A stretch of 64,000 bases of DNA, taken from the NCBI GenBank assembly GCA_021399435.1, contig JAJTUP010000008.1, positions 1,364,001 to 1,428,000 of the forward strand, written 5' to 3'. The notes beneath the pieces were generated by a model that was not told the DNA's origin, made no database searches, and saw only the letters and a program-made list of their open reading frames with translations. This document shows positions 3,801 to 15,883 of the stretch, piece after piece. Position 1 is the stretch's first letter; every line of letters begins with the position of its first letter. The position numbers and the translations under genes were made by a program. This stretch comes from Diaporthe sp. PMI_573. Lineage: Eukaryota > Ascomycota > Sordariomycetes > Diaporthales > Diaporthaceae.

Positions 3801-4514
3801 GAGACTGCCCTTCGAGAGCCTGGAGGTAAGCCTTGAGGCGAGGCATCGCTACCATTCCGTGAGGGCAGGCCATGCGGAATCTGGATACTCAGGGGAGTCG
3901 GTCTCGAAGATGTGATTGAAAATGGGGGGCGGGTGCCTCCTCCAACTGAATCAGGGGAATGTGTTGTTTCCGGATCTCTTCTCCTCCCGAAAGATGGCAG
4001 GCCGAACCGCCTTTCCCGAGATGAGCCTCTGGCATTGGGAGGAGGCGGGAACGACTGGGTGCCTGCGGGCTCAGGTGAGGGACGATGTGGCGTAGGGAGG
4101 GGAGTCCGAGTCATAGACATGTTGGCAGCAGGAACCCCATCGAGATACATGCTAGTCGGCCTCTGGCTTCGCGGGGGAGAATACGGAGGAGGCGGAAGAG
4201 GAGAGCCTGCTTTCTCACATTAGCTCATTGGCAGTGGTCGTGGTTGATGGCGAGGATCAATCATTACCAGTGGACTCGGGAGAGCTCAACTGATGGCTCC
4301 TTTCGTGACCGGGGCCCGGCATTGGCGATGGCAGCCACTCCTGCGGGTTGTAAGGCTGGATTGCGCTCACTGGGGTCGGGGCATTGTGAGAGTTTGAGCT
4401 GAACGACATGGCGGAGATTGGGGTGTTGGCGTTGTGTGGGTAGGGGCCGAGAGATGAGGTCAACAAAGGGTTCAATCTCGGGCGGAGGGCCCTTGGATCG
4501 CGGTTGTCGCTCAT
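803..4514 (-). CDS. Large disordered protein with C-terminal helical region, function unknown
   Basis: Two-exon model, 1216 aa: exon 1 4514-4268, intron 4267-4207 (61 nt, GTAATG donor, GCTAAT branch, CAG acceptor), exon 2 4206-803. The splice joins frames cleanly (...ESTG/SPLPPPP...). I chose ATG 4514 because the frame upstream has only a GTG before it; more 5' exons are possible. The N-terminal two-thirds is rich in Pro, Ser, Arg and Gln and looks disordered. A conserved-looking segment near the middle (FAQEEAVAADDAERVRLFAD, then ESRIRRERY) and the last ~300 residues are predicted helical and coiled-coil-like, with many Leu, Glu and Arg (for example LLEKLTLLKWIFEARELLHR). I recognise no catalytic motif or named domain. 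It resembles conserved hypothetical proteins of filamentous fungi; a scaffold or cytoskeletal adaptor role would be pure inference. The gene is GC-rich, so long antisense frames overlap it. Confidence 0.8.
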
Positions 4515-7500
4515 GGCGACTGATGCGGCAGGGTGCGCCGGGACGGTTGGATCGTTGTCTATATACGGATGCGCATGGAACACAGGCGAGTGGCACGTGT
4601 CCGGGGCCGGTAGCGAAAGTGGACTGAGCCGCGCGAGGTTCTGGACAGGAACAGAAGTGAATCAGTCCCTTCCCCGGTACGGATTGGCCGGCGCAAGGCG
4701 TGCGTGCGATGTTCTCGGGAAGTGGTCCTCGAGAGCCCCACGTCCTTGGCAGGTGGTCCGTATTTGCTGTGCCGCCTGATGGCAACTCGGTCCACAGCAG
4801 ACAGTGCTGCGTTGGGATCACAGACTGAGCGGGTTGAGGTAGGGACAGAAACAACAGATCCAGCCCGCGAGTGAGGCGGCGGCGGCTGATTGTGTAAGGG
4901 TGTGGTGAAGTCCAAAGGCAGCAGGTACAATAGATTAAAAACAGGCGATTGCCCAAGCGGGTGGTTGACGATCGACAGTCCAAGGGTGTGCAGGGGCCCT
5001 GGTCTCTGGCCTCTGGTCTCCTGGGAGCGGTACCGAGGCGAAGAGTACACCGTACTGTTGTGTGGGCCCCTCCTTGTCAGTGGTCCCAATATCGGCCTGC
5101 ATAAGGGTTGCAGATGGCCCTTCGCTTGCCTCGTCCAGGGCCGGGCAACAGCGTACGCGTGTGTCAAATAAACTCTTGCAGAGGTTGAGGCGACCCGGTG
5201 AAGGGACCAGGTACTCAGCACTGTGGTAGACAAGAGAGCCGTGCAGGACCAGGTGGGTAGCGAAAGCAGCACAAAGCAGCACGACACCGAGCAGCCTACC
5301 GTCCTGTGTAATGTATGTCACGGGAAGGTCATGCAGGTTCCGGGTCGTGAGCCGGAAGGGGGGAAGGGCGAGGCGGCAGGCCGAGGAGCCAAGGCGAGAG
5401 ACGACGATGGCTGGAGCTGTCTTGTCTCGGCGTTGACGGCGCGATCGGAAGGCCGGCGGGGAGAGGCGCCACAGGTTGCAACTCGCTGCTACACTGTCAT
5501 GACCGCTACTTCGCGAGGTGACTCGCAGTCAGTCGGTTCAACGGCTCGCAAGGGGACGAGGACATGCCCGGGATTGGGTCTTGCAGGCCTGCCAAGTGCA
5601 TGCCAACATGCTTGTCGGGTCTATTCTTAGACCACCATCGCCAGGAGACATTGCCGTCTTATTCGCTGGTGGGTTGTGTGATGGGGACGATGCCGGCGCT
5701 TAAAAAACGTCCCATGTCTTGCTAGGCAGGCTAGGTCAACTCAGCACCACATGTGATTTGGTCCCGTCGGGGCGTTGGTCCCCCCTCCCGCCTTGCCCCT
5801 CCACCCTGCACACCACAGTATGTCCAACCCAGATAAGCTTAGTGGGTCTCGAAGCAGGGTCCAGAGCTTGGAGCTACCATCCCGGTCGGCCATGCTGCCG
5901 TAGCAATTTCAGCCCGCCTCAGCTCGGGGCTCCCAGGGCTTCTCTTCTCATCCACATGCCAGCTTCAACATGCACAGCCACACTACCACTAGGGACATAT
6001 GCAGGATATCACCCTGCGAGACGACTCTGCTCGGGAGTTCTGTCTTCCATATGCAGTGCGACTCCAGAGAGCCCAGAAAGCCCAATCAATATGCACTGCA
6101 CGCTGACGACACGATACCCGTCTCACCCATCAAAAAAAGAGCCAAGAGTCTCTAATACAGTGGAAGCTTCACAAAACGTCGTGGCCCGTCCCGCTCAGCA
6201 GGAACCTGGTACAGTAGCATCGCATTTTGTCGATTATCTACCCTGTCCCAGGAAACATGCTCGTACTGTAATATATAGCCACGGAACGCTCCTTTCCCGC
6301 TGCACGATGCCTCCCTAGCCCTGTGACCTCCAACGTCACTTCTCAGCACCTGCTGTACGCATCAGCAGCTTGCCTCTTGCTACCTACGCTCGCAGGCACG
6401 CAGGCACGCACTGTTCGTGCGGCCGCTTGCTATTTGTGGGCGCAAGTCAGCAGCATTTGTCCTTTTTGCGGGACCAGCTCCGACCTTGTCCCTCCAAGCA
6501 TAACGGGCCACCGTCCACAACAAGCTCGTGGGGTCGCTTGGACCCAGTCCCAAAAATAGGCAGATAGATTAAACATCAGTGTTCACAGTACACGGTGCAA
6601 CTCGGAAGACACCTTACCCAGCAATGGTCCACAACCAACACCCGATGGAGGATGGAGCATCGCGGTTGGCTCGTTCTGCCTTGACGCCTCCATCGTCCGC
6701 TCGGCATCAGGACCAATACAAACTGTCCAAGACACACAGTCGCGAACCTTGATCAAGAGCCAATCGAGCCGCGTTATGCACCAGTCAAAGCGGACGTTGC
6801 AGCTAAGCATTTGGTGCCATTTGCCCCGTGCGTCTGTCACCTGCAAACACGTACCGGCAGGGTGGACCCGAACGCCCGGCGGCCGAACCATCCGCTTGCA
6901 TCTTGGTGGCGTTTCTTTATATAGAACATCTGCAGTGTTGGGGACTGCTCCGCGCTCCTGTGGACGGGTGACTGCTTGGTTGGGCCTCATTCTAGGGAGC
7001 TCGAAATGTGTATGGGTGCCACCGTCCTGGCCATCAGCACCTGATTGATTGCAAAAAATGGTAGCCACTCGAAATCTGTCACTACATTCCAAGATTAGAA
7101 CCTGAGCGCTGGGAGACGGGAGAAAGATCGCAATTGGGATTCTTCTCCGGGAATACCATCCTTTCTTTGCATGGGGCGGTCGACTCCAGTACATCAAAGC
7201 TCGGCCAGTCAATATTGACACGGAAGCTTGTGTTCTTTTGCCTCCTGCTGTCCCACTCGGCTTTGCCTACTTCGCCTAAGCGCCTTCAATTGCATCTCGT
7301 CTTTCTCCCGGGCTTCAACATCTAACTTTGGCGCAAGTCATCTTTCGAATTCTCTCGGAGCAGGACATGAGGCTGACCTGAGTGGTCAATACCACCTCGC
7401 AGGAGAGGCCTATATTGGGATCACATCACTCCCTCCCAACGAGCCGATCGCTCTATAAATAGAACCTAATAAAGTGCGCCCTTTGTGATACGATACTCCT

Positions 7501-8091
7501 ACATCACGCATGCAACATCGGTTCCAGTTCGGAGGAAATATGAGATAGGCTGCCAGCCGAAAGAATCTGTATTACGCATGCGAGCAGTAAGTACACGTAT
7601 AGGTCAGACCAAGCTCGTAGAATAATGACCTAAATCATGGTCTCTATTTCAGTCTTGGTGCTTCGTGATCGATTCTTCCCAAGTTCCATTCCAATACTGT
7701 TTGTCCGGCATGAAGGAAAGCAATTAGTCATGGTGGAACAAACAGGTTTATCAGATTGTCAGCTATTCGGTCATACCCAGGTGTCTTAGTCTTGTAATTG
7801 TTAAGATTTCTTTCCAAATGATTTGGGATGAAAGTATTTAGACCACTTATATCATTACTGGTATTACTGCGCGGTTGTAGTTTGGAGTCTGATGCTTAAA
7901 CATCCTTTGCAAGTTGAATGGACAACGAGAATTTGCTAGCATTCTGCCTTTTCATCATACTGGTATTAGATGGATATCCAGAATCAGACAGCTATTTCCA
8001 TTTCTTCCTAGTAGTTTGGAATGTTTGAAGCTCTGCTAAGGTTCGACGCTGAGTTCCAGGCGAAGACAGTTGGTACCATAGGCGGTGGCTC
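4515..8091. other. Long intergenic region (3.6 kb), no gene seen
   Basis: It lies between the start of the large minus-strand gene and the AsnRS pseudogene. The overlapping frames here (up to about 240 aa on the minus strand at 4559-5287 and 6583-7221) run over each other in several phases, lack recognisable motifs, and have no splice-linked partners. The left part is GC-rich and could be a long promoter or leader of the minus-strand gene. The right part (about 7500-8050) is AT-rich. Confidence 0.45.
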
Positions 8092-8795
8092 ATGCCTGGC
8101 TCGCGCCAAGTGACATCGAAGGATCTCTACTGTGACTCACAATTCACCGGCAGACTCATTGCCATTTCCGCGTATACATCCGAGCAGGCAGCGAAAAGTT
8201 CTGAAGCGCAGCTCTCGCCTTTCTTGTGTCAAATTTTGCCCAAGTTACTCGACTGCGGACCATCCATATACATCGACGAAGAGCGGGGGGTTGATGGGAC
8301 GGATACCCAGGGCACCGAGGCTAGCCCCTTTCAAAGCTTGGCTCAAGCTTACCTGAAGCATGGATCCGACAACGAATATCGAGTCAAGAAGAAGGGCGAC
8401 GAGGAGTTCAAGCCCGCCGCTAAAGCAGCTTTGAAGAAAGCTGTCAACTATGCGGACGCCCAACGCAAGAAACGCGAGGCCGCGGCTAAACGAGCGGAAA
8501 AGGAGGAGCAAGAGACTACCGCTGTCGAGGCAGCACTAGCCGCGACCCAGAACATACACATAGCAGAAGATCCTGCTTTACCAAAGGCGACTTTGATCGA
8601 TATTGAAGAGACGGATCCCCAGGTTATAGGCCGGCTCCGTAAAACTCAAGACGAGCCACCGCAAAAGGGGGCAGCTCGGCGTGTGCGTGTACAGGGCCGA
8701 GTACACCGCGTGGCAAAGCAGGGAGGGCTCATGTTCGTAACTCTGCGGCGCGGCCTCAGCCTGATGCAGTGCCTCCTGTCTGGACAATTGACCAA

Positions 8796-8955
8796 GGTGA
8801 AGGACTCGTCGCCGCACGGCGCCTTTGCAATGATGCGGAAGTAGTCCGCATGCAGTTCCCGGCTACGTGGCGCATGGAGACCAGGCGGCACCTCCCACAG
8901 TTCGCCCGAAATTTCCATGGACGTCTCTCTTGCCAGGGTGAGCGCATCGTATGCC
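8796..8955 (-). other. 160-bp inverted segment inside the AsnRS pseudogene
   Basis: Plus-strand AsnRS homology stops after ...LSGQLTK (AAG ends at 8796) and resumes at NRAPEDGG (AAC at 8956). The missing ~53 residues (YDALTLARETSM, GELWEVPPG, ELHADYFRIIAKAP) are read on the minus strand from 8954 down to 8796. If the segment is flipped back, it joins both flanks in frame (LTK/AYDAL and DESFT/NRAPE). The breakpoints share only one G/C base; I see no flanking inverted repeat. Confidence 0.88.
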
Positions 8956-9255
8956 AACAGGGCTCCCGAGGACGGTGGCCCCAGCACTCTCCTCAACCTG
9001 CGTCACTTGGCCCTGCGCTATGACAAGGCTGCGGCTGTGATGTTCGTACGAGATGCTCTGGAGAACGCTTTCCATGTCTCCTACAGAGAGAAAAACATCA
9101 AGAAAGTCAGCCCTCCGGCTATCGTGCAGACCCAGGTGGAAGTTCGCGCCACGCTGTTCGCTTTCGAATATTATGGCGAGCAAGCCTTCTTGACACAATC
9201 AAGCCAGCTGTACTTGGAGACTGTTCTTCCATCACTTGATGATGTGTATTGCATT

Positions 9256-9291
9256 GAGAAGTCATTCAGGGCTGAGAAGTCATTCAGGGCT
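9256..9291 (+). repeat. Tandem 18-bp duplication in motif 2 of the AsnRS pseudogene
   Basis: The unit GAGAAGTCATTCAGGGCT occurs at 9256-9273 and again at 9274-9291, followed by GAGAAGTCACTC. It encodes EKSFRA twice, giving EKSFRAEKSFRAEKSLTR where the family has a single FRAEKSLTR. The two copies are identical, so the duplication is recent relative to the point changes elsewhere in the gene. Confidence 0.95.
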
Positions 9292-10150
9292 GAGAAGTCA
9301 CTCACTCGTTGTTATGTGAGTAATTCCCGATACTGTTTGTTTCGTCTCCCGGTCTGAATATCTTGGCCAAAGGAAGAATTATTTGTGTTTACTGCAATAT
9401 TGCTCATTCGACTCTTCATTCTGATCGATTCTCGGGCGCTGAGTACTCTCATATCGAGGCCGAACTAGACTTCATAACCTTCGATGACCTCCTCGATCAC
9501 ATTGAGCAAATCGTATGCCGCGTCATTGTCCTCGTTCTCGAGGACCCGTTTGCGAAGGACCGCATAAAGAAGTACAATCCAGAGTTCACCAAGCCTGCCC
9601 GCCCTTTTATGAGAATGCGATACTCAGACGCGATCAACTGGCTACGCGCAAGGGGCATCCAGACACCGGAGGGACAGGACCACGTCTTTGGGGACGACAT
9701 GTTGGTTCCCCTCCACTCTCTAGTGTGTCAAACAGCGCCCTAATTGAGAAGTCATATAGTGCGGAGGCTGCGGAACGCAAGATGACCGATGAGATCAACC
9801 GGCCCATACTGCTAACACACTTTCCCGTGGCTTTGAAAGCCTTCTACATGCAGCCTGACTCCGAGGACCCGCGTGTGACGGAATCCGTGGATCTCCTCAT
9901 GCCAGGCGTCGGAGAGGTCGTCTGAGGTAGTATGCGAATATGGGACCATGACGCGTTGCTTGCTGCATACAAGCGCGAGGGTATCAATCCCGCGGGCTAC
10001 TACTGGTACATTGACCAGCGCAAGTATGGGTCGTCGCCCCACGGAGGCTACGGTTTGGGCGAGGAAAGCTTTCTCGCTTGGCTCATGAAGCTTTGGACCG
10101 TCCGGGAAGCTTGTCTGTATTCCCGCTTCATGGGCAGATGCATACCGTAA

Positions 10151-11927
10151 GAAGGAGGGGATGCATGTGAATGCGACCTCAAGGCGCCCACCTCGACGCT
10201 TACATGCTCTAGGTTGATTGTCTATGGCTAGTTGTAATGGAAGGGCCTCGAGTTATGGGCGATGACGACGGGACGCTGCCCGCTGGTCATGATCATGGCG
10301 ATGATGCTGACTTTTGGCAGAGACTTATGGCGGAATATGACTCAGAGGGCCGAGCACATGGATGCAATCTGTGTTGGATCGCGAGTTGGAGTTGAGATAG
10401 GATGAAGAAGATCGCCTGGTGGCTGTACGCGGAGAGGTGTTTGCTCCGAACGCCTTCCTGGACACAGTATTTACCGACAATGATCGGCCAACACAAGACG
10501 AAAATATTTCAGCTATCAGCACGGCACTGGTGTAACCGCTCGCTGGAACATGCCACGGCTGCTGGGTAAACTCCAACCTGGAACAGGCCCGAGTTTTGTG
10601 AGAGCTCCCTGAAGATCCCCAATCAAGTATCCGCATGGGGATCCTGTACCTCCTTGGCCAAACGCCCCTCGCGTGTCCGGCCTGCCCCAGTATTCTGGGT
10701 CGTCCTGGGGCATATAACGGACGGCTTAGGATTTTCATTGAGGTGAAAGTGAGGACCGAGAACAGGAGTCTTGATGTCGTGTGAAGGTGACCCCAAATTC
10801 CAGGGGCAGTGACCGGCATACGTAGCTCGACGCCTCGGGCTTCGCTTTTGTGTTATGACCGCCAGATCCTCTTTGTTGTTGGGCTCGGAACGGTCCAGAT
10901 GTCAGGTTTGGCCGCTCTGCAGTTACGTAGCGTGTTGGTCAGTATAGGGGGGTGCAGGAACAAGTCAACAGCCTGATGAGGTGAACCAGAAGATCGTGCT
11001 GGAATATTCAGGGAGAAAGTTCTAAGAGTCTCCTGTGTACGGATGGGAATCAGGATACTGCATGTGCCACCCGAATGGGAGTGTCTTCTGGGAAGGGTCT
11101 TGCTTGGTCGGGGTAATCTTTTGCGGGCATTCCGTCCCATGTAGGACATTTCGTCCGACGCAGCACCTTTCGTCCAATGTGTTGTGCAAGACATCTAGAT
11201 CTCTCTGGTTTGCAGATTCATAGCTGTCAGAACTGTCAAAGGTTTGCCCGAAGAACAATCATTCCTCTGCTCCATTGGTGAACCGATATGAGTCCTATAT
11301 GAAATTCACATGTCTGATAGCCTAGCTGATGTAGAAAATATTCCCCAATTGTAACGCTTCTACGCCAGGTTTTGTTTGTCGCGAAGCAAACAAATATCAC
11401 CACCAGACCCTAATTTTTATGTGACCAGTCCCGTGCACGTCGCCTCAAAGCTCTGCAGAGGTGCTGAACAGGGAAAGGTCGGTGATAAATTGCCAACAAA
11501 CAGAAGATGATTACCATTTGATATCTCACATCTATCCAGAGGAAATCGAAGAACTCAAGTGCTCGTACCTTTCACATCCATCATCCCACAGGAAGATTTG
11601 ACCAGTAGGAAGCTGACAGTCAGCCCAAACAATTGAAGTCATAATTTGTTCCCACATTGTCCCAAGCCATGGTTTGCCACGAGGGATGTCCTGCATTTAT
11701 AGAGGGTGATTCTCTAGGGATCCATCCCATAGATTATGGGAAGGGTCACCTTCACTGGTGAGGTCGCCACGCTGTGGAGAAATGCAAAATGTACGTTCAG
11801 AGACCAATGACTTTCTTGTGGTATGTGAATATCAGTCTATCCTTCAGGGCTTGCCGGCGTTTCCCAGCGCTTGGGTGCTCGTATCATCGGCTTCTCCCCC
11901 TACTCGCAGATGCCAAACAGGTGCCTA
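10151..11927. other. Intergenic region with possible gene relics
   Basis: No intact gene. On the plus strand from ATG 10256 a 47-codon frame (starts MGDDDGTLPAGHDHG) ends in TGA. A second open stretch in another frame follows (DRLVAVRGEVFAPN...), which could be relics of one broken gene, but I cannot name a family. From about 11300 to 11830 the sequence is AT-rich and featureless. Confidence 0.35.
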
Positions 11928-12444
11928 CTAGGAGAAGTACCACTCCACTCTGATGAAGCCGTCGTCTCCACCAAGGACGCGCCGGAGCTCCTCGTCGGAT
12001 ATGCCCTGGAGGGACTTCTCGCCCGAATCGTCGTAAATGTAGTCGATGAACTGAAGCTTGGAGTTGATGAGATCCGCAAAGTCATGATCTTTACAGCACT
12101 GGATGATGGCGTTCCTGAGTGCCTGCTCGAATGTCTCCCTGTTGATGACAGCCAGGGCACCGAGATCGACCAACACATCTAGCTTCTCTATTTCACATCA
12201 GCTTCATGTCGCGGGGCCCCAAGTTAAGACTTCAAAATGCCTTTTTCCACAGTGCAGTGGGGCATGAGAAAGCATATACAGTGGCAAACTTACCGTAGCG
12301 GAAGCTCTCGTCGACCTCCATTGTCTTGGTGTCTCTAGAGCCCATGCAGTCGTGGCGTGCCAGCATTCGGATCGTGATATGCCTGTTTCCATCAGGCTCA
12401 TGAGAAATGCCTGTCTGAGAATCGTTTGTCTGCTCAGTAGACAT
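11928..12444 (-). CDS. Small acidic protein of unknown family, tandem copy 1
   Basis: Two exons: 12444-12294 and 12178-11928, intron 12293-12179 (115 nt, GTAAGT donor, GCTGATG branch, CTAG acceptor). The spliced protein is 133 aa. The junction reads ESFRY/DVLVDLGALAV and is in frame. It is acidic, with no signal peptide, no membrane segment and no cysteine pattern that I recognise. Its C-terminal third (SDEELRRVLGGDDGFIRVEW) matches the end of the neighbouring gene at 13739-14329 (DQGLQRVLAGGEGFVEVVW), and both genes have one intron at a comparable place. The homology at DNA level continues past the stop codon (a GATGCCAAACAGG block on the plus strand) and upstream of the start, so the two are tandem duplicates. 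A TATA-like element lies about 170 bp upstream (plus strand CTATATAG near 12612). Function unknown. Confidence 0.65.
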
Positions 12445-13738
12445 GTTGACTGCTTGTTCCTGTTATGCAGTATACTGTGGCGATGACGCTGACAGGTTCA
12501 GTCTGTAGAAAGAACGTTTAGAAAGCTAGAAGTTTTGGCTGGGGATGCACTCGCTAGCTTCGTATATGTTGTACTCCGGGGTAAAAACTAACCCCAATCA
12601 GCGAGAGACAGCCCTATATAGCAAATATCACTCAATTGTGGGCTGAATCTGGGTCACCAGTGCATTCCGCTCACAATGTTCCTCAATGTGCCTCATAGGC
12701 CTATAGCTGAGTCACTGAGTTCATTGACTCGCATTATGAGCCTAAAAAGATCAGACTGCTAAGTTGTGACCGAGAAATTGCTATTGTGCTTGTCTGTGAC
12801 ATCCAATGCACACGTGCTGCGATTTTTATGCCAACACAGACAGCCCCTGCGAGTATAAAAGTCTTGGCGTGCAAACAAACTATATTGAGAGGCCCAGGTA
12901 TCATGCATGAGACAGGAGGCTCAATCGAGATGACAAACAGAACAAATACTACTGAGAACCGTTCCTGGAGAGTGCATGACATCAGGATGCAAGGAACAAA
13001 TGGCACAAGTAGGCACCAAGTGTCCCAGCATAAACGGGCAAGATGCCTAGTGCCCTTGCATCCCGACATCAACAAACATAGGACAGCAAAAGGTCCCTGG
13101 AGGACACGAGGGTTGTAGATGCCGAGGGGTGCCATGTGTCGGTCAGTTTTTGGTAGTGAAGCTAGAGGGACAAGTGGATGGCAAGTATGGAGGACTAGAA
13201 GATTTTCTGGACAAGCTCTGAAGACGGCCTTGAGGTTCTTGCGCAGGCAATGAGGCACCTGGGTACCGCCAACCAAATGTGAGGTCCTGTTAGACAACAT
13301 CGTGATTGGTTGGAGGCACGCCCCGCGACTGCGAGTGAGGATTCCGTCCGTTGTAGAGTCTTTCGTCCCATTCCTTGTGAATGGTCTCGCCCGATCTGTA
13401 GAGGGTTTTGCAGCTTCCAGGGCAGTCAATGGATTCGCTGGAAAGAATTACTCCTTGCTTCATTGACACTGTGGGCAGGCTTGGGACGGTTCCAGAATTC
13501 GCCTGACCGAAAGCCTAGCCAGAATGAGATCTCATCTGAAAGGAGCATTCTCCTATGAGAGGTGCTGTCGTGCTATGCAAACAAACAAACAAAGAAGCGC
13601 ATGATCATGTAATCATTCCCGTTCACGTCAACTCCATTCATCAGAGTTTTCTAGGCAACACCCCCCCCCTTCAACAACCCCCAAACTTGACGCTGTCGTC
13701 GTGGTTTCCCTCTCCACTTGCAGATGCCAAACAGGCAC
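12445..13738. other. Spacer between the tandem paralogues
   Basis: It includes the upstream homology block of copy 1 (to about 12850). A minus-strand frame of about 188 codons (ATG near 13300 to 12734) contains three hydrophobic stretches but has no recognisable family, and its 3' end overlaps the duplicated upstream block, so I do not call it a gene. A nine-C run lies at 13661-13669. Confidence 0.4.
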
Positions 13739-14329
13739 CTAGAAGTCCCACACCACCTCGACGAAGCCTTCGCCTCCAGCAAGGACGCGTTGGAGACCCT
13801 GGTCTGGTATATCCAGGAGGGACAGAGGCACTCTATCCGGGTCGTAGTATACGTACTCAAAGGAAATGTATACGTAGGACACATCATCTTCGTGCTCTAG
13901 GCCGTGATAGCCACCCATCTCAATGATTTGATCAACCTCCTCCTCAAGGTCGTCAATGGAAATTCGAGCCAGATCGAGGATGACCTGCTCGTCCTGGTCG
14001 TCTACTGTGTGTCAGTTTCAAGCCGCGAAGCCCAAATTGATGCTTTCAAGGAGACTTCGAGGTGAAGAACAGCAGATGATTGCTGGCCTGGCGGTAGACT
14101 TACGGCAGACAAGATCCCCGTCGACCTCCTGTTGCTGCTCGTCAAATAGGCCTTGGCACCTGTTGTGAATGGTCTTGATTCTGACCATGACGGTGTAGGA
14201 CGTGTGTCTGGAGGGGATGAGTTTGATGGTGGATTCACCAGTAAAGCCGGTCTTGGGGTTGGTTTTCTGCATGGGCATTTTGAGGGAAGGTTTCTGGCCG
14301 TGTGGTATGCGTTGTGGGATGGAGATCAT
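13739..14329 (-). CDS. Small acidic protein of unknown family, tandem copy 2
   Basis: Two exons: 14329-14104 and 14004-13739, intron 14103-14005 (99 nt, GTAAGT donor, CAG acceptor). The spliced product is 163 aa; the join reads DGDLVC/LDDQDEQVILDL. An internal ATG at 14278 (MPMQKTNPK) is an alternative start. The second exon is very acidic (DDLEEEVDQIIEMGGYHGLE) and ends RVLAGGEGFVEVVWDF. It is the diverged duplicate of the gene at 11928-12444: same strand, same exon layout, similar C-terminus and similar 3' flank. The two proteins align only loosely over their first 100 residues, so they have diverged much faster in sequence than in architecture. There is no signal peptide or known domain, and function is unknown. 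Confidence 0.65.
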
Positions 14330-15883
14330 GAGTTTGTGTAAACAATGGTTGGAAGGTTGAAGTGCAAGGCCTGGCTAATCCAGCCATCAACACGGGAGAG
14401 CTTTAAAGGTTGGGTTGAGTAGCCCCTTCTCTGCCCAGCTGTCGTACCACTGGGTAGGAATTGAACCCGGCGCAGAGAGGAACGACCCTGCATGGAAAAC
14501 AAAATGCAGTTGCGAGCCGGGTCTTGATCACTGGAGCAATGCTCACAACATGCTTCCCAGGGACATGGACGAGTCACGACGGCGCTCCACCCGCCTTATG
14601 AGCCCAGGACGGCACGGCCTGTGATAGAGCTGTACCATTGTTTCTGTCTGACTGAATCCAGCACAACCACACTATGAGTTCTTCGCCAGACCAGACTGCC
14701 CCTACGAGTATTTCAATGTCTAATTAATATGGCCGTTGGACCATACATGTAATAATGGTATGTAGTGATTGTTGTAGCAGAGAGTACTTGCCCCCTCTGA
14801 TGAATGCTTCTTGGAAGAGGCAAAGCAACATTGAATGCAAGAATCTTCATAGGCTGCTTCTATAATGTACGTTGCATTTTGTGGTAGCATGCCTTTGGGC
14901 TGGGATATTTCAGTCATTACTCTAGAACTGAATTCAAAAGGACACTTGCTAAGACTGGCGGATACCAGCTATTACTCTAGAAGACTGTCAGAAATGATAC
15001 TCAAGTTTGGAAAAGTTGCTACTAAATGTGATATCCAGGATTAAACGGGCTGGGCTACCTATCATGATTTGTGTGTGCAGGTGCCCTTTTTGGGCACACG
15101 TGTGTTGGTGCCACCTCACAGCAGCTGTCCATGCCCGCTTCATGGATTACATGCTTCACCCAACAACTCCGAGCTTATCATAACTAACTGGATAGTAATT
15201 TTCCCGACTCTCAATCGCCTGATATCACCTTTCGTCCCATACTGCCTTTTGTTCCATCCTGTTCTTGGACAGGCAACTTGAGTCACTCGTCCTGGGCCGA
15301 GGCGCTTGCAGACGAGATAAACACAATTTCCTAACCCACAAGCCCATTGAATCCAGCAACCTTGCAAGGATTTGGGTCACATGTATTGACATGCCTGTTG
15401 GGTATGTGAGTAAGGTTCCACTTCTATCACCTTCATACAGTGTTACTTGACGGGCTGCAATGCAGTCCAATCTCTCACAAATGGACTCGTTCTTTTGAAT
15501 TGAAAAGCGTCGTACTATTAAAGTGAGTTGCTTGAGGCAAAGGAGTGATTCATGAGATTTCAATCGCACCTGCCACTTTTAACAAGTTCTTCGGTCTTAC
15601 CCATTCACCTGGAGGCCTTGATGCAAATTCGCTAGACCTGGACTGAATGCGCAAGACCCCTCCGCACTTGCCCAAGACTTAGCACCCAGGACTTGCCAAC
15701 CTCAACACTGAAAACGATTCGAGCCTGATCAAAGTCCAGGACTGGCCGATCAAAGTTGCCTTGCCTCATCTCGCCACCTAGACACGTCACCACACATTAC
15801 CCTTGTCAGCCTCAAGCACACACATCAGTTTTGAGTTCCTCATCCAAACTGACCAAGTGTTCCACGGTGTAGGAGTGGGAAAG
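14330..15883. other. Intergenic region, no gene seen
   Basis: The left 400 bp is the upstream homology block of tandem copy 2. The rest, to the 2EXR gene, contains only short unconnected frames. A TTTCGTCC-type motif occurs near 15228 and also near 11148, 11168 and 13358, possibly remnants of a dispersed repeat. Confidence 0.4.

What the first reader, a model, noticed from the sequence alone, without database searches (positions are those of the whole stretch)
8796..8955. In-gene microinversion of 160 bp in an asparaginyl-tRNA synthetase copy
AsnRS homology on the plus strand is interrupted exactly where the matching residues appear on the minus strand. Flipping 8796-8955 restores both junctions in frame, which is very unlikely by chance. 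Internal, perfectly delimited microinversions are rarely caught this fresh, and the breakpoints show no inverted repeat beyond one base, which points to end-joining rather than recombination between repeats.
Basis: partly seen in the sequence, partly recalled or inferred. Interest (0 to 1): 0.75.

Follow-up and report, generated by a model that had tools for sequence, protein, structure and literature searches.

The report
Small inversion in a dead gene
In a fungus, a short stretch inside a second, broken copy of a protein-synthesis gene has been flipped end for end; the flip is real in the assembly and looks young, but it is one of several ordinary defects in a dying gene.

Summary
Window 8796-8955 is a clean, lossless inversion of 156-160 bp inside an asparaginyl-tRNA synthetase (AsnRS) gene. 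Read apart, the plus pieces and the minus piece fall on consecutive residues of relatives, with none lost or gained. All 6 of 6 near relatives that reach the segment, and a seventh more distant one (9 fetched of 74 hits), have the ordinary orientation; the nearest agrees with the window at 320 of 347 positions. So the flip is derived and young.

(1) The edges share 2 bp of inverted microhomology, not 1. (2) The gene is a pseudogene with other lesions: lost start Met, duplicated motif-2 stretch, in-frame TGA, motif-3 Arg lost. (3) End-joining is not shown; a replication template switch fits as well.

The genome, Diaporthe sp. PMI_573, has an intact AsnRS elsewhere. The window copy belongs to a separate second AsnRS lineage of filamentous ascomycetes, and some metagenome relatives look broken too. 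Assembly error cannot be excluded without reads. An ordinary kind of event, neatly preserved; I found no sign of function for the flip.

The parts
8257..8259 (+). Place where the 23 compared lineage members have the start Met; here Gly. The nearest upstream in-frame ATG, at 8092, adds an extension in which no Pfam family was found
   Evidence: (site invariant in 23); in the 8092-8841 frame the first Pfam match starts at residue 75
8251..8795 (+). Left part of the coding sequence: AsnRS N-terminal domain (PF20917) and first half of the anticodon-binding OB fold (PF01336 positions 1-42 of 75, below that family's cut-off)
8796..8955 (-). Inverted segment (equally 8797-8954 or 8798-8953): 53 residues after the first half of the OB fold, readable on the minus strand
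8842..8844 (+). TAG stop that the inversion puts into the left reading frame
8956..9315 (+). Right part: start of the class II catalytic domain (PF00152)
9255..9304 (+). 18-bp tandem duplication (2.8 copies) that repeats six residues (FRAEKS) over class II motif 2; absent from the 10 lineage members printed and from P0243-P0246
9316..9437 (+). Probable intron 1 (donor GTGAGT at 9316); predicted proteins of four metagenome relatives run into non-AsnRS letters at the same place. Acceptor unclear: no AG directly before the next conserved codon
9438..9700 (+). Next coding part of the catalytic domain
9701..9759 (+). Probable intron 2, 59 bp, GT...AG; leaving it out joins ...GDD to ...AEAAERK as in relatives
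9760..9922 (+). Next coding part of the catalytic domain
9923..9925 (+). In-frame TGA where the 10 lineage members printed have Gly
9926..10147 (+). C-terminal part of the catalytic domain; the Arg invariant in 23 lineage members (class II motif 3) is Ser at 10067-10069

Best explanation
The window holds a recently broken, intron-containing second AsnRS gene (not a retrocopy) of Diaporthe sp. PMI_573. Shown: a 156-160-bp segment lies inverted in place in the assembly, without loss or gain of residues, with 2 bp of inverted microhomology at its edges; near relatives have the ordinary orientation; the genome keeps an intact AsnRS of a different lineage. Inferred: the enzyme was dispensable because the other AsnRS covers charging of tRNA-Asn, so lesions accumulated neutrally, and one of them was this microinversion. 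It arose either by two nearby breaks rejoined the wrong way round by non-homologous end-joining, or by two replication template switches (MMBIR-like) using the 2-bp microhomology. I hold these two about equal. The inversion itself has no function: it puts a TAG into the reading frame and would leave at most a 250-residue product with the N-terminal domain and half an OB fold.
For: Piecewise contiguity and lossless junctions. Of 9 fetched near hits, 7 reach the segment and all 7 have the ordinary orientation: P0242-P0247 of the near clade and the more distant P0277; P0241 and P0275 end before it. Window and P0243 agree at 320 of 347 positions; the segment carries 2, 1 or 2 window-only changes in 53 sites with P0245, P0244 or P0135 as outgroup, so the flip is young. 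Intact AsnRS elsewhere in the genome, identical to the record named Diaporthe sp. PMI_573 on a contig of the same length. Other lesions. Constraint until recently: 12 of 215 sites invariant in 23 lineage members are changed, against 0-11 of 215-226 when each of the 23 is left out in turn. Longest exact inverted match between the 120-bp breakpoint zones 6 bp; random pairs reach 6 bp or more in 472 of 500.
Against: No reads were available, so an assembly error is not excluded. The mechanism is not resolved: lossless rejoining at both ends is unusual for end-joining (recalled), while the great-ape gold-standard template switches copy at most 128 nt and leave length unchanged in 5.5% of events (PMC7954356, passages), and the definite human-chimpanzee microinversions have inverted repeats of at least 3 nt (PMC8755829, abstract and passages). 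Three imperfect inverted pairs (10-15 nt, 80-91%) do have arms on either side of the segment, but 50 bp or more from its edges and unevenly placed; no chance control was run for these. Near relatives are unnamed metagenome predictions seen only as proteins and only up to intron 1; frameshifts there could be sequencing errors. Twelve changed invariant sites are only one more than the most diverged lineage member (11), so relaxed constraint is weakly shown by that count; the case for a pseudogene rests on the discrete lesions.
Confidence: 0.85

Rival explanations
1. Assembly or sequencing artefact: the segment was flipped by the assembler and the chromosome carries it in the ordinary orientation.
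For: No reads or independent assembly of this strain were available; the near-identical independent sequence P0241 stops before the segment and cannot confirm it.
Against: A contig of 1.74 Mb, no exact inverted match longer than 6 bp between the breakpoint zones to mislead an assembler, exact base-level joins, and other independent lesions in the same gene.
Confidence: 0.07
2. The inversion is functional: the truncated 250-residue product (AsnRS N-terminal domain plus half an OB fold) or an antisense transcript is selected for.
For: The upstream frame is open from an ATG at 8092 to the TAG at 8842 with the PF20917 domain over its cut-off; a near-identical metagenome sequence (P0241, 144 of 147 positions) was also predicted as a 200-residue N-terminal protein from the same start.
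Against: P0241 ends upstream of the flip, so the shared truncated frame does not depend on the inversion; no Pfam family was found in the extension upstream of the domain; the downstream catalytic part is still readable and carries separate lesions, as neutral decay predicts.
Confidence: 0.04
3. Still an active gene: splicing removes the inverted segment and the other defects and yields a working enzyme.
For: Two introns are recognisable, so the gene was spliced; no frameshift was seen inside the coding pieces.
Against: Skipping the segment would delete half the anticodon-binding fold; the start Met, the motif-3 Arg and an in-frame TGA in the catalytic domain are separate losses.
Confidence: 0.04

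Closest known systems
Microinversions between human and chimpanzee (Potapova et al. 2022, PMC8755829; abstract and passages seen)
   Same: Short in-place reverse-complement replacement, mostly with exact copying of the segment
   Different: Those are 17-33 nt and all flanked by inverted repeats of 3-75 nt; this one is 156-160 bp with 2 bp of inverted microhomology at its edges, inside a former coding sequence of a filamentous fungus
Template-switch spacer inversions in Saccharomyces cerevisiae genes (Abraham and Hazkani-Covo 2021, PMC8604942; abstract seen)
   Same: Local inversion within fungal coding DNA
   Different: Those lie between perfect inverted repeats and replace up to five neighbouring residues; here no such repeats adjoin the segment and the gene is broken
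Duplicated aminoacyl-tRNA synthetases (review PMC9437257; passages seen)
   Same: A second, diverged synthetase gene beside another one for the same amino acid
   Different: The word AsnRS does not occur in that main text; the function of this second AsnRS lineage is unknown and the window copy is dead
Second-lineage AsnRS proteins, e.g. P0121 Diplogelasinospora grovesii, P0122 Sarocladium strictum, P0135 Tolypocladium paradoxum
   Same: Same lineage as the window copy (100/100 support)
   Different: They have the ordinary orientation, start Met, single motif 2 and motif-3 Arg

Membership tests
Microinversion (in-place reverse complement of a short segment) | Segment reads as reverse complement of the orthologous segment with flanks in place | tested here: met
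Microinversion (in-place reverse complement of a short segment) | Derived state against close relatives | tested here: met
   at protein level: 7 of the 9 fetched hits (of 74) reach the segment, all 7 in the other orientation; 6 of them are in the near clade
Microinversion flanked by inverted repeats of 3 nt or more (as in PMC8755829) | Inverted repeats at the boundaries | tested here: not met
   2 bp only directly at the edges; longest exact match between 120-bp zones 6 bp, as expected by chance; imperfect pairs only 50 bp or more away
Microinversion (in-place reverse complement of a short segment) | Supported by raw reads | not testable with these tools
   no reads held
Non-processed pseudogene | Inactivating lesions relative to intact orthologues | tested here: met
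   start Met, inversion with TAG, motif-2 duplication, TGA, motif-3 Arg
Non-processed pseudogene | Introns retained | tested here: met
   59-bp GT-AG stretch whose removal matches relatives; intron 1 donor where relatives' predicted proteins also run into non-AsnRS letters; acceptor of intron 1 unclear
Non-processed pseudogene | No functional product | not testable with these tools
   no transcripts or proteins held
Cytosolic AsnRS (class IIb) | AsnRS N-terminal domain, OB fold, class II core | tested here: met
   PF20917 and PF00152 pieces over cut-off; OB fold PF01336 below cut-off (as also in intact P0121) and cut at position 42 of 75
Cytosolic AsnRS (class IIb) | Invariant motif-3 Arg and single motif 2 (motif names recalled) | tested here: not met
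   Ser at 10067-10069; six residues duplicated

The most novel reading that the evidence does not exclude
The window copy is a dead relic of a distinct second AsnRS lineage of filamentous ascomycetes that is gained by transfer or lost repeatedly and may serve something other than bulk translation, for example tolerance of an AsnRS inhibitor or a condition-specific role. The lineage holds Paecilomyces (Eurotiales) beside mostly Sordariomycetes, but at an unresolved fork, so transfer is not shown there; the tree rejects grouping the window copy with the Sordariales/Coniochaetales block (p = 0.005, group chosen after seeing the tree).
Probability: 0.15. Interest if true: 0.5.

Novelty: new member of a known kind. 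Interest (0 to 1): 0.22.

Why it matters
Lossless inversions of 100-200 bp lie between the microinversions of tens of bases and kilobase inversions, and are easily missed because they break alignments. A case with exact breakpoints, a near relative in the ordinary orientation and no adjoining repeats is a clean example for models of how such inversions form without repeats. The second AsnRS lineage, seemingly patchy and broken in several relatives, is a lead on why some fungi keep another AsnRS gene.

Tried and rejected
Rejected: a recent copy of the genome's own AsnRS. The intact gene (P0001) is 30-62% identical to the three pieces, has introns at other places (read; my splice matches P0001) and sits in another clade. 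Rejected: retrocopy, because introns are present. Judged unlikely: a repeat-mediated flip. No exact repeat at the edges stands out from chance; imperfect inverted pairs with arms on either side exist but lie 50 bp or more from the edges. Looked for other gene remains near the copy: 10 ORFs between 4.3 and 13.4 kb gave one Pfam hit at E up to 0.05, below its cut-off. Rfam (gathering threshold) and tRNA scans of the window were empty. The DNA of the near relatives was not fetched: the cap for metagenome scans is 0 and I did not try one, so orientation was read from predicted proteins.

Paper searches for a described second AsnRS lineage in fungi (15 of 1,779, 4 of 4 and 12 of 16 papers listed) and for fungal microinversions or intragenic inversions in pseudogenes (20 of 4,445, 20 of 7,976 and 15 of 2,058 listed) showed no title or abstract start on those subjects in filamentous fungi. 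Apart from the papers named in this report and one passage of PMC4392301 (a bacterial truncated AsnRS homologue, not relevant), only listings were seen, and the library lacks most subscription journals.

Full report
What was checked. The window is 64 kb of contig C196 (1,737,433 bp) of an 83.7-Mb genome in 217 contigs. The same genome's intact AsnRS, on contig C148, is 100% identical to the record 'asparaginyl-tRNA synthetase [Diaporthe sp. PMI_573]', whose contig has the same length, 772,209 bp, so I take the organism to be that fungus (Sordariomycetes, Diaporthales).

The inversion is there. Read without joining anything, window 8251-8793 on plus, 8796-8954 on minus and 8956-9315 on plus each match AsnRS, without stops. 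On P0122 the three pieces cover residues up to 177, 180-231 and from 232; residues 178 and 179 are the split codon and the first middle residue. On the nearest relative P0243 the middle piece matches 50 of 53 residues and the flanking residues adjoin it exactly. Nothing was lost or gained at either end. The longest exact inverted match between the two 120-bp breakpoint zones is 6 bp; 472 of 500 random pairs at that distance had 6 bp or more. Three imperfect inverted pairs (10-15 nt, 80-91%) have arms on either side of the segment, 50 bp or more from its edges; I ran no control for them and do not think they matter. The flip puts a TAG at 8842-8844 into the left frame and cuts the OB fold at profile position 42 of 75.

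The flip is derived and recent. A search with the 263-residue left ORF gave 74 hits; I fetched 9. Two (P0241, P0275) end before the segment. The other seven have it in the ordinary orientation: P0243-P0246 right through, P0247 through it with a frameshift just after, P0242 with a frameshift inside it, and the more distant P0277 through its first part. P0243 agrees with the window copy at 320 of 347 positions, and a quick tree puts window, P0241 and P0243 together (SH-aLRT 97), inside a clade of eight (99) with P0242 and P0244-P0247; P0277 lies outside, beside Tolypocladium. With P0245 as outgroup, 16 sites changed only in the window copy and 9 only in P0243, of 347; with P0244, 14 and 8 of 347; with P0135, 13 and 3 of 332. 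Of the 16, four come from misalignment at the duplicated stretch and three are the lost start and its two neighbours. In the segment the counts are 2 and 1, 1 and 2, and 2 and 0 of 53. P0243-P0246 are seen only up to intron 1, so 'intact' is known only that far.

The gene is a pseudogene. Besides the inversion, the start Met conserved in 23 lineage members is absent, an 18-bp tandem duplication repeats six residues across motif 2, an in-frame TGA stands where the 10 members printed have Gly, and the motif-3 Arg invariant in the 23 is Ser. Introns are retained: a 59-bp GT-AG stretch at 9701-9759 whose removal gives the relatives' sequence, and a donor at 9316 where the predicted proteins of P0243-P0246 also run into non-AsnRS letters. 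So it is not a retrocopy. Of 215 sites invariant in the 23 members (two of 25 dropped for odd C-termini), 12 are changed, the start Met among them; each member left out in turn shows 0-11 of 215-226. Decay is therefore recent, and that count alone would not prove it. The lost start is shared with P0241, which agrees with the window at 144 of 147 positions but ends earlier, so the gene may have been dead before it was flipped; this order is not proven, because P0241 does not reach the segment.

What the copy is. The tree of 59 rows (14 of the 120 proteins listed; 19 and 25 of the 120 listed; and the window copy) puts it in a lineage separate from the genome's own AsnRS with 100/100 support, though the bootstrap had not fully settled. 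In one search, 38 of the 120 listed proteins (62-73% identical) precede a drop to about 60%; only the 7,997 candidates sharing most words were scored. Named members are in Hypocreales, Sordariales, Coniochaetales, Xylariales, Xylogone and Paecilomyces (orders recalled); none of the named ones among the 120 is a Diaporthe, and many of the 120 are unnamed. Paecilomyces sits at an unresolved fork of the lineage, so its transfer is possible but not shown. Holding the window copy with six rows of the Sordariales/Coniochaetales block, two of them unnamed, costs 30 log-likelihood units, p-AU 0.005, with the group named after seeing the tree. Transfer or repeated loss could each explain this. I could not see gene neighbourhoods in other fungi, and I did not test which of these fungi also hold another AsnRS.

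How it arose. Repeat-mediated recombination is unlikely. Two breaks joined the wrong way round would explain the absence of repeats, but lossless joins at both ends are not typical (recalled). A double template switch or microhomology-mediated break-induced replication explains lossless copying. However, the great-ape gold-standard set copies at most 128 nt, with 5.5% of events leaving length unchanged (PMC7954356, passages), and the definite human-chimpanzee microinversions of 17-33 nt all have inverted repeats of at least 3 nt (PMC8755829, abstract and passages). I hold the two about equal.

Verdict. A correct and careful observation; an ordinary kind of event in a decaying, redundant gene. 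Its worth is as a clean, polarised example in a size range that is easy to miss, and as a pointer to a second AsnRS lineage. The open risk is an assembly error, which only reads can settle.

Noticed in passing
G000 contigs C8, C31, C157, C162, C193, C212 (loci L008-L013, L025-L036): Six copies of a class II synthetase gene; the one scanned (L013) joins tRNA-synt_2 to LPG_synthase_C (DUF2156), like the fungal ErdS described in PMC9437257 (passage). Five are 98.7-99.9% identical over 3.2-3.7 kb and one (C162) about 90%; C8 and C157 share about 9.7 kb at 99.6-99.9%, up to the end of contig C8. Looks like a recent segmental amplification.
   Followed up: partly
P0241, P0242, P0247 (metagenome relatives): Other close relatives of the window copy also look broken, in different ways (lost start and early end; frameshifts), suggesting repeated loss of this second AsnRS.
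   Followed up: partly
window 11889-12015 and 13703-13823: Two stretches 74% identical over 127 columns, similar as minus-strand protein too: possibly a tandem pair of small genes.
   Followed up: partly
window 4300-15700: Stretch around the dead gene in which the 10 ORFs tested (up to 13.4 kb) showed no clear Pfam domain; a 2EXR-family frame follows at 15782.
   Followed up: partly
P0123-P0130 (Paecilomyces): Eurotiales members in a lineage otherwise mostly from Sordariomycetes, at an unresolved fork: a possible horizontal transfer of the second AsnRS, not shown.
   Followed up: partly
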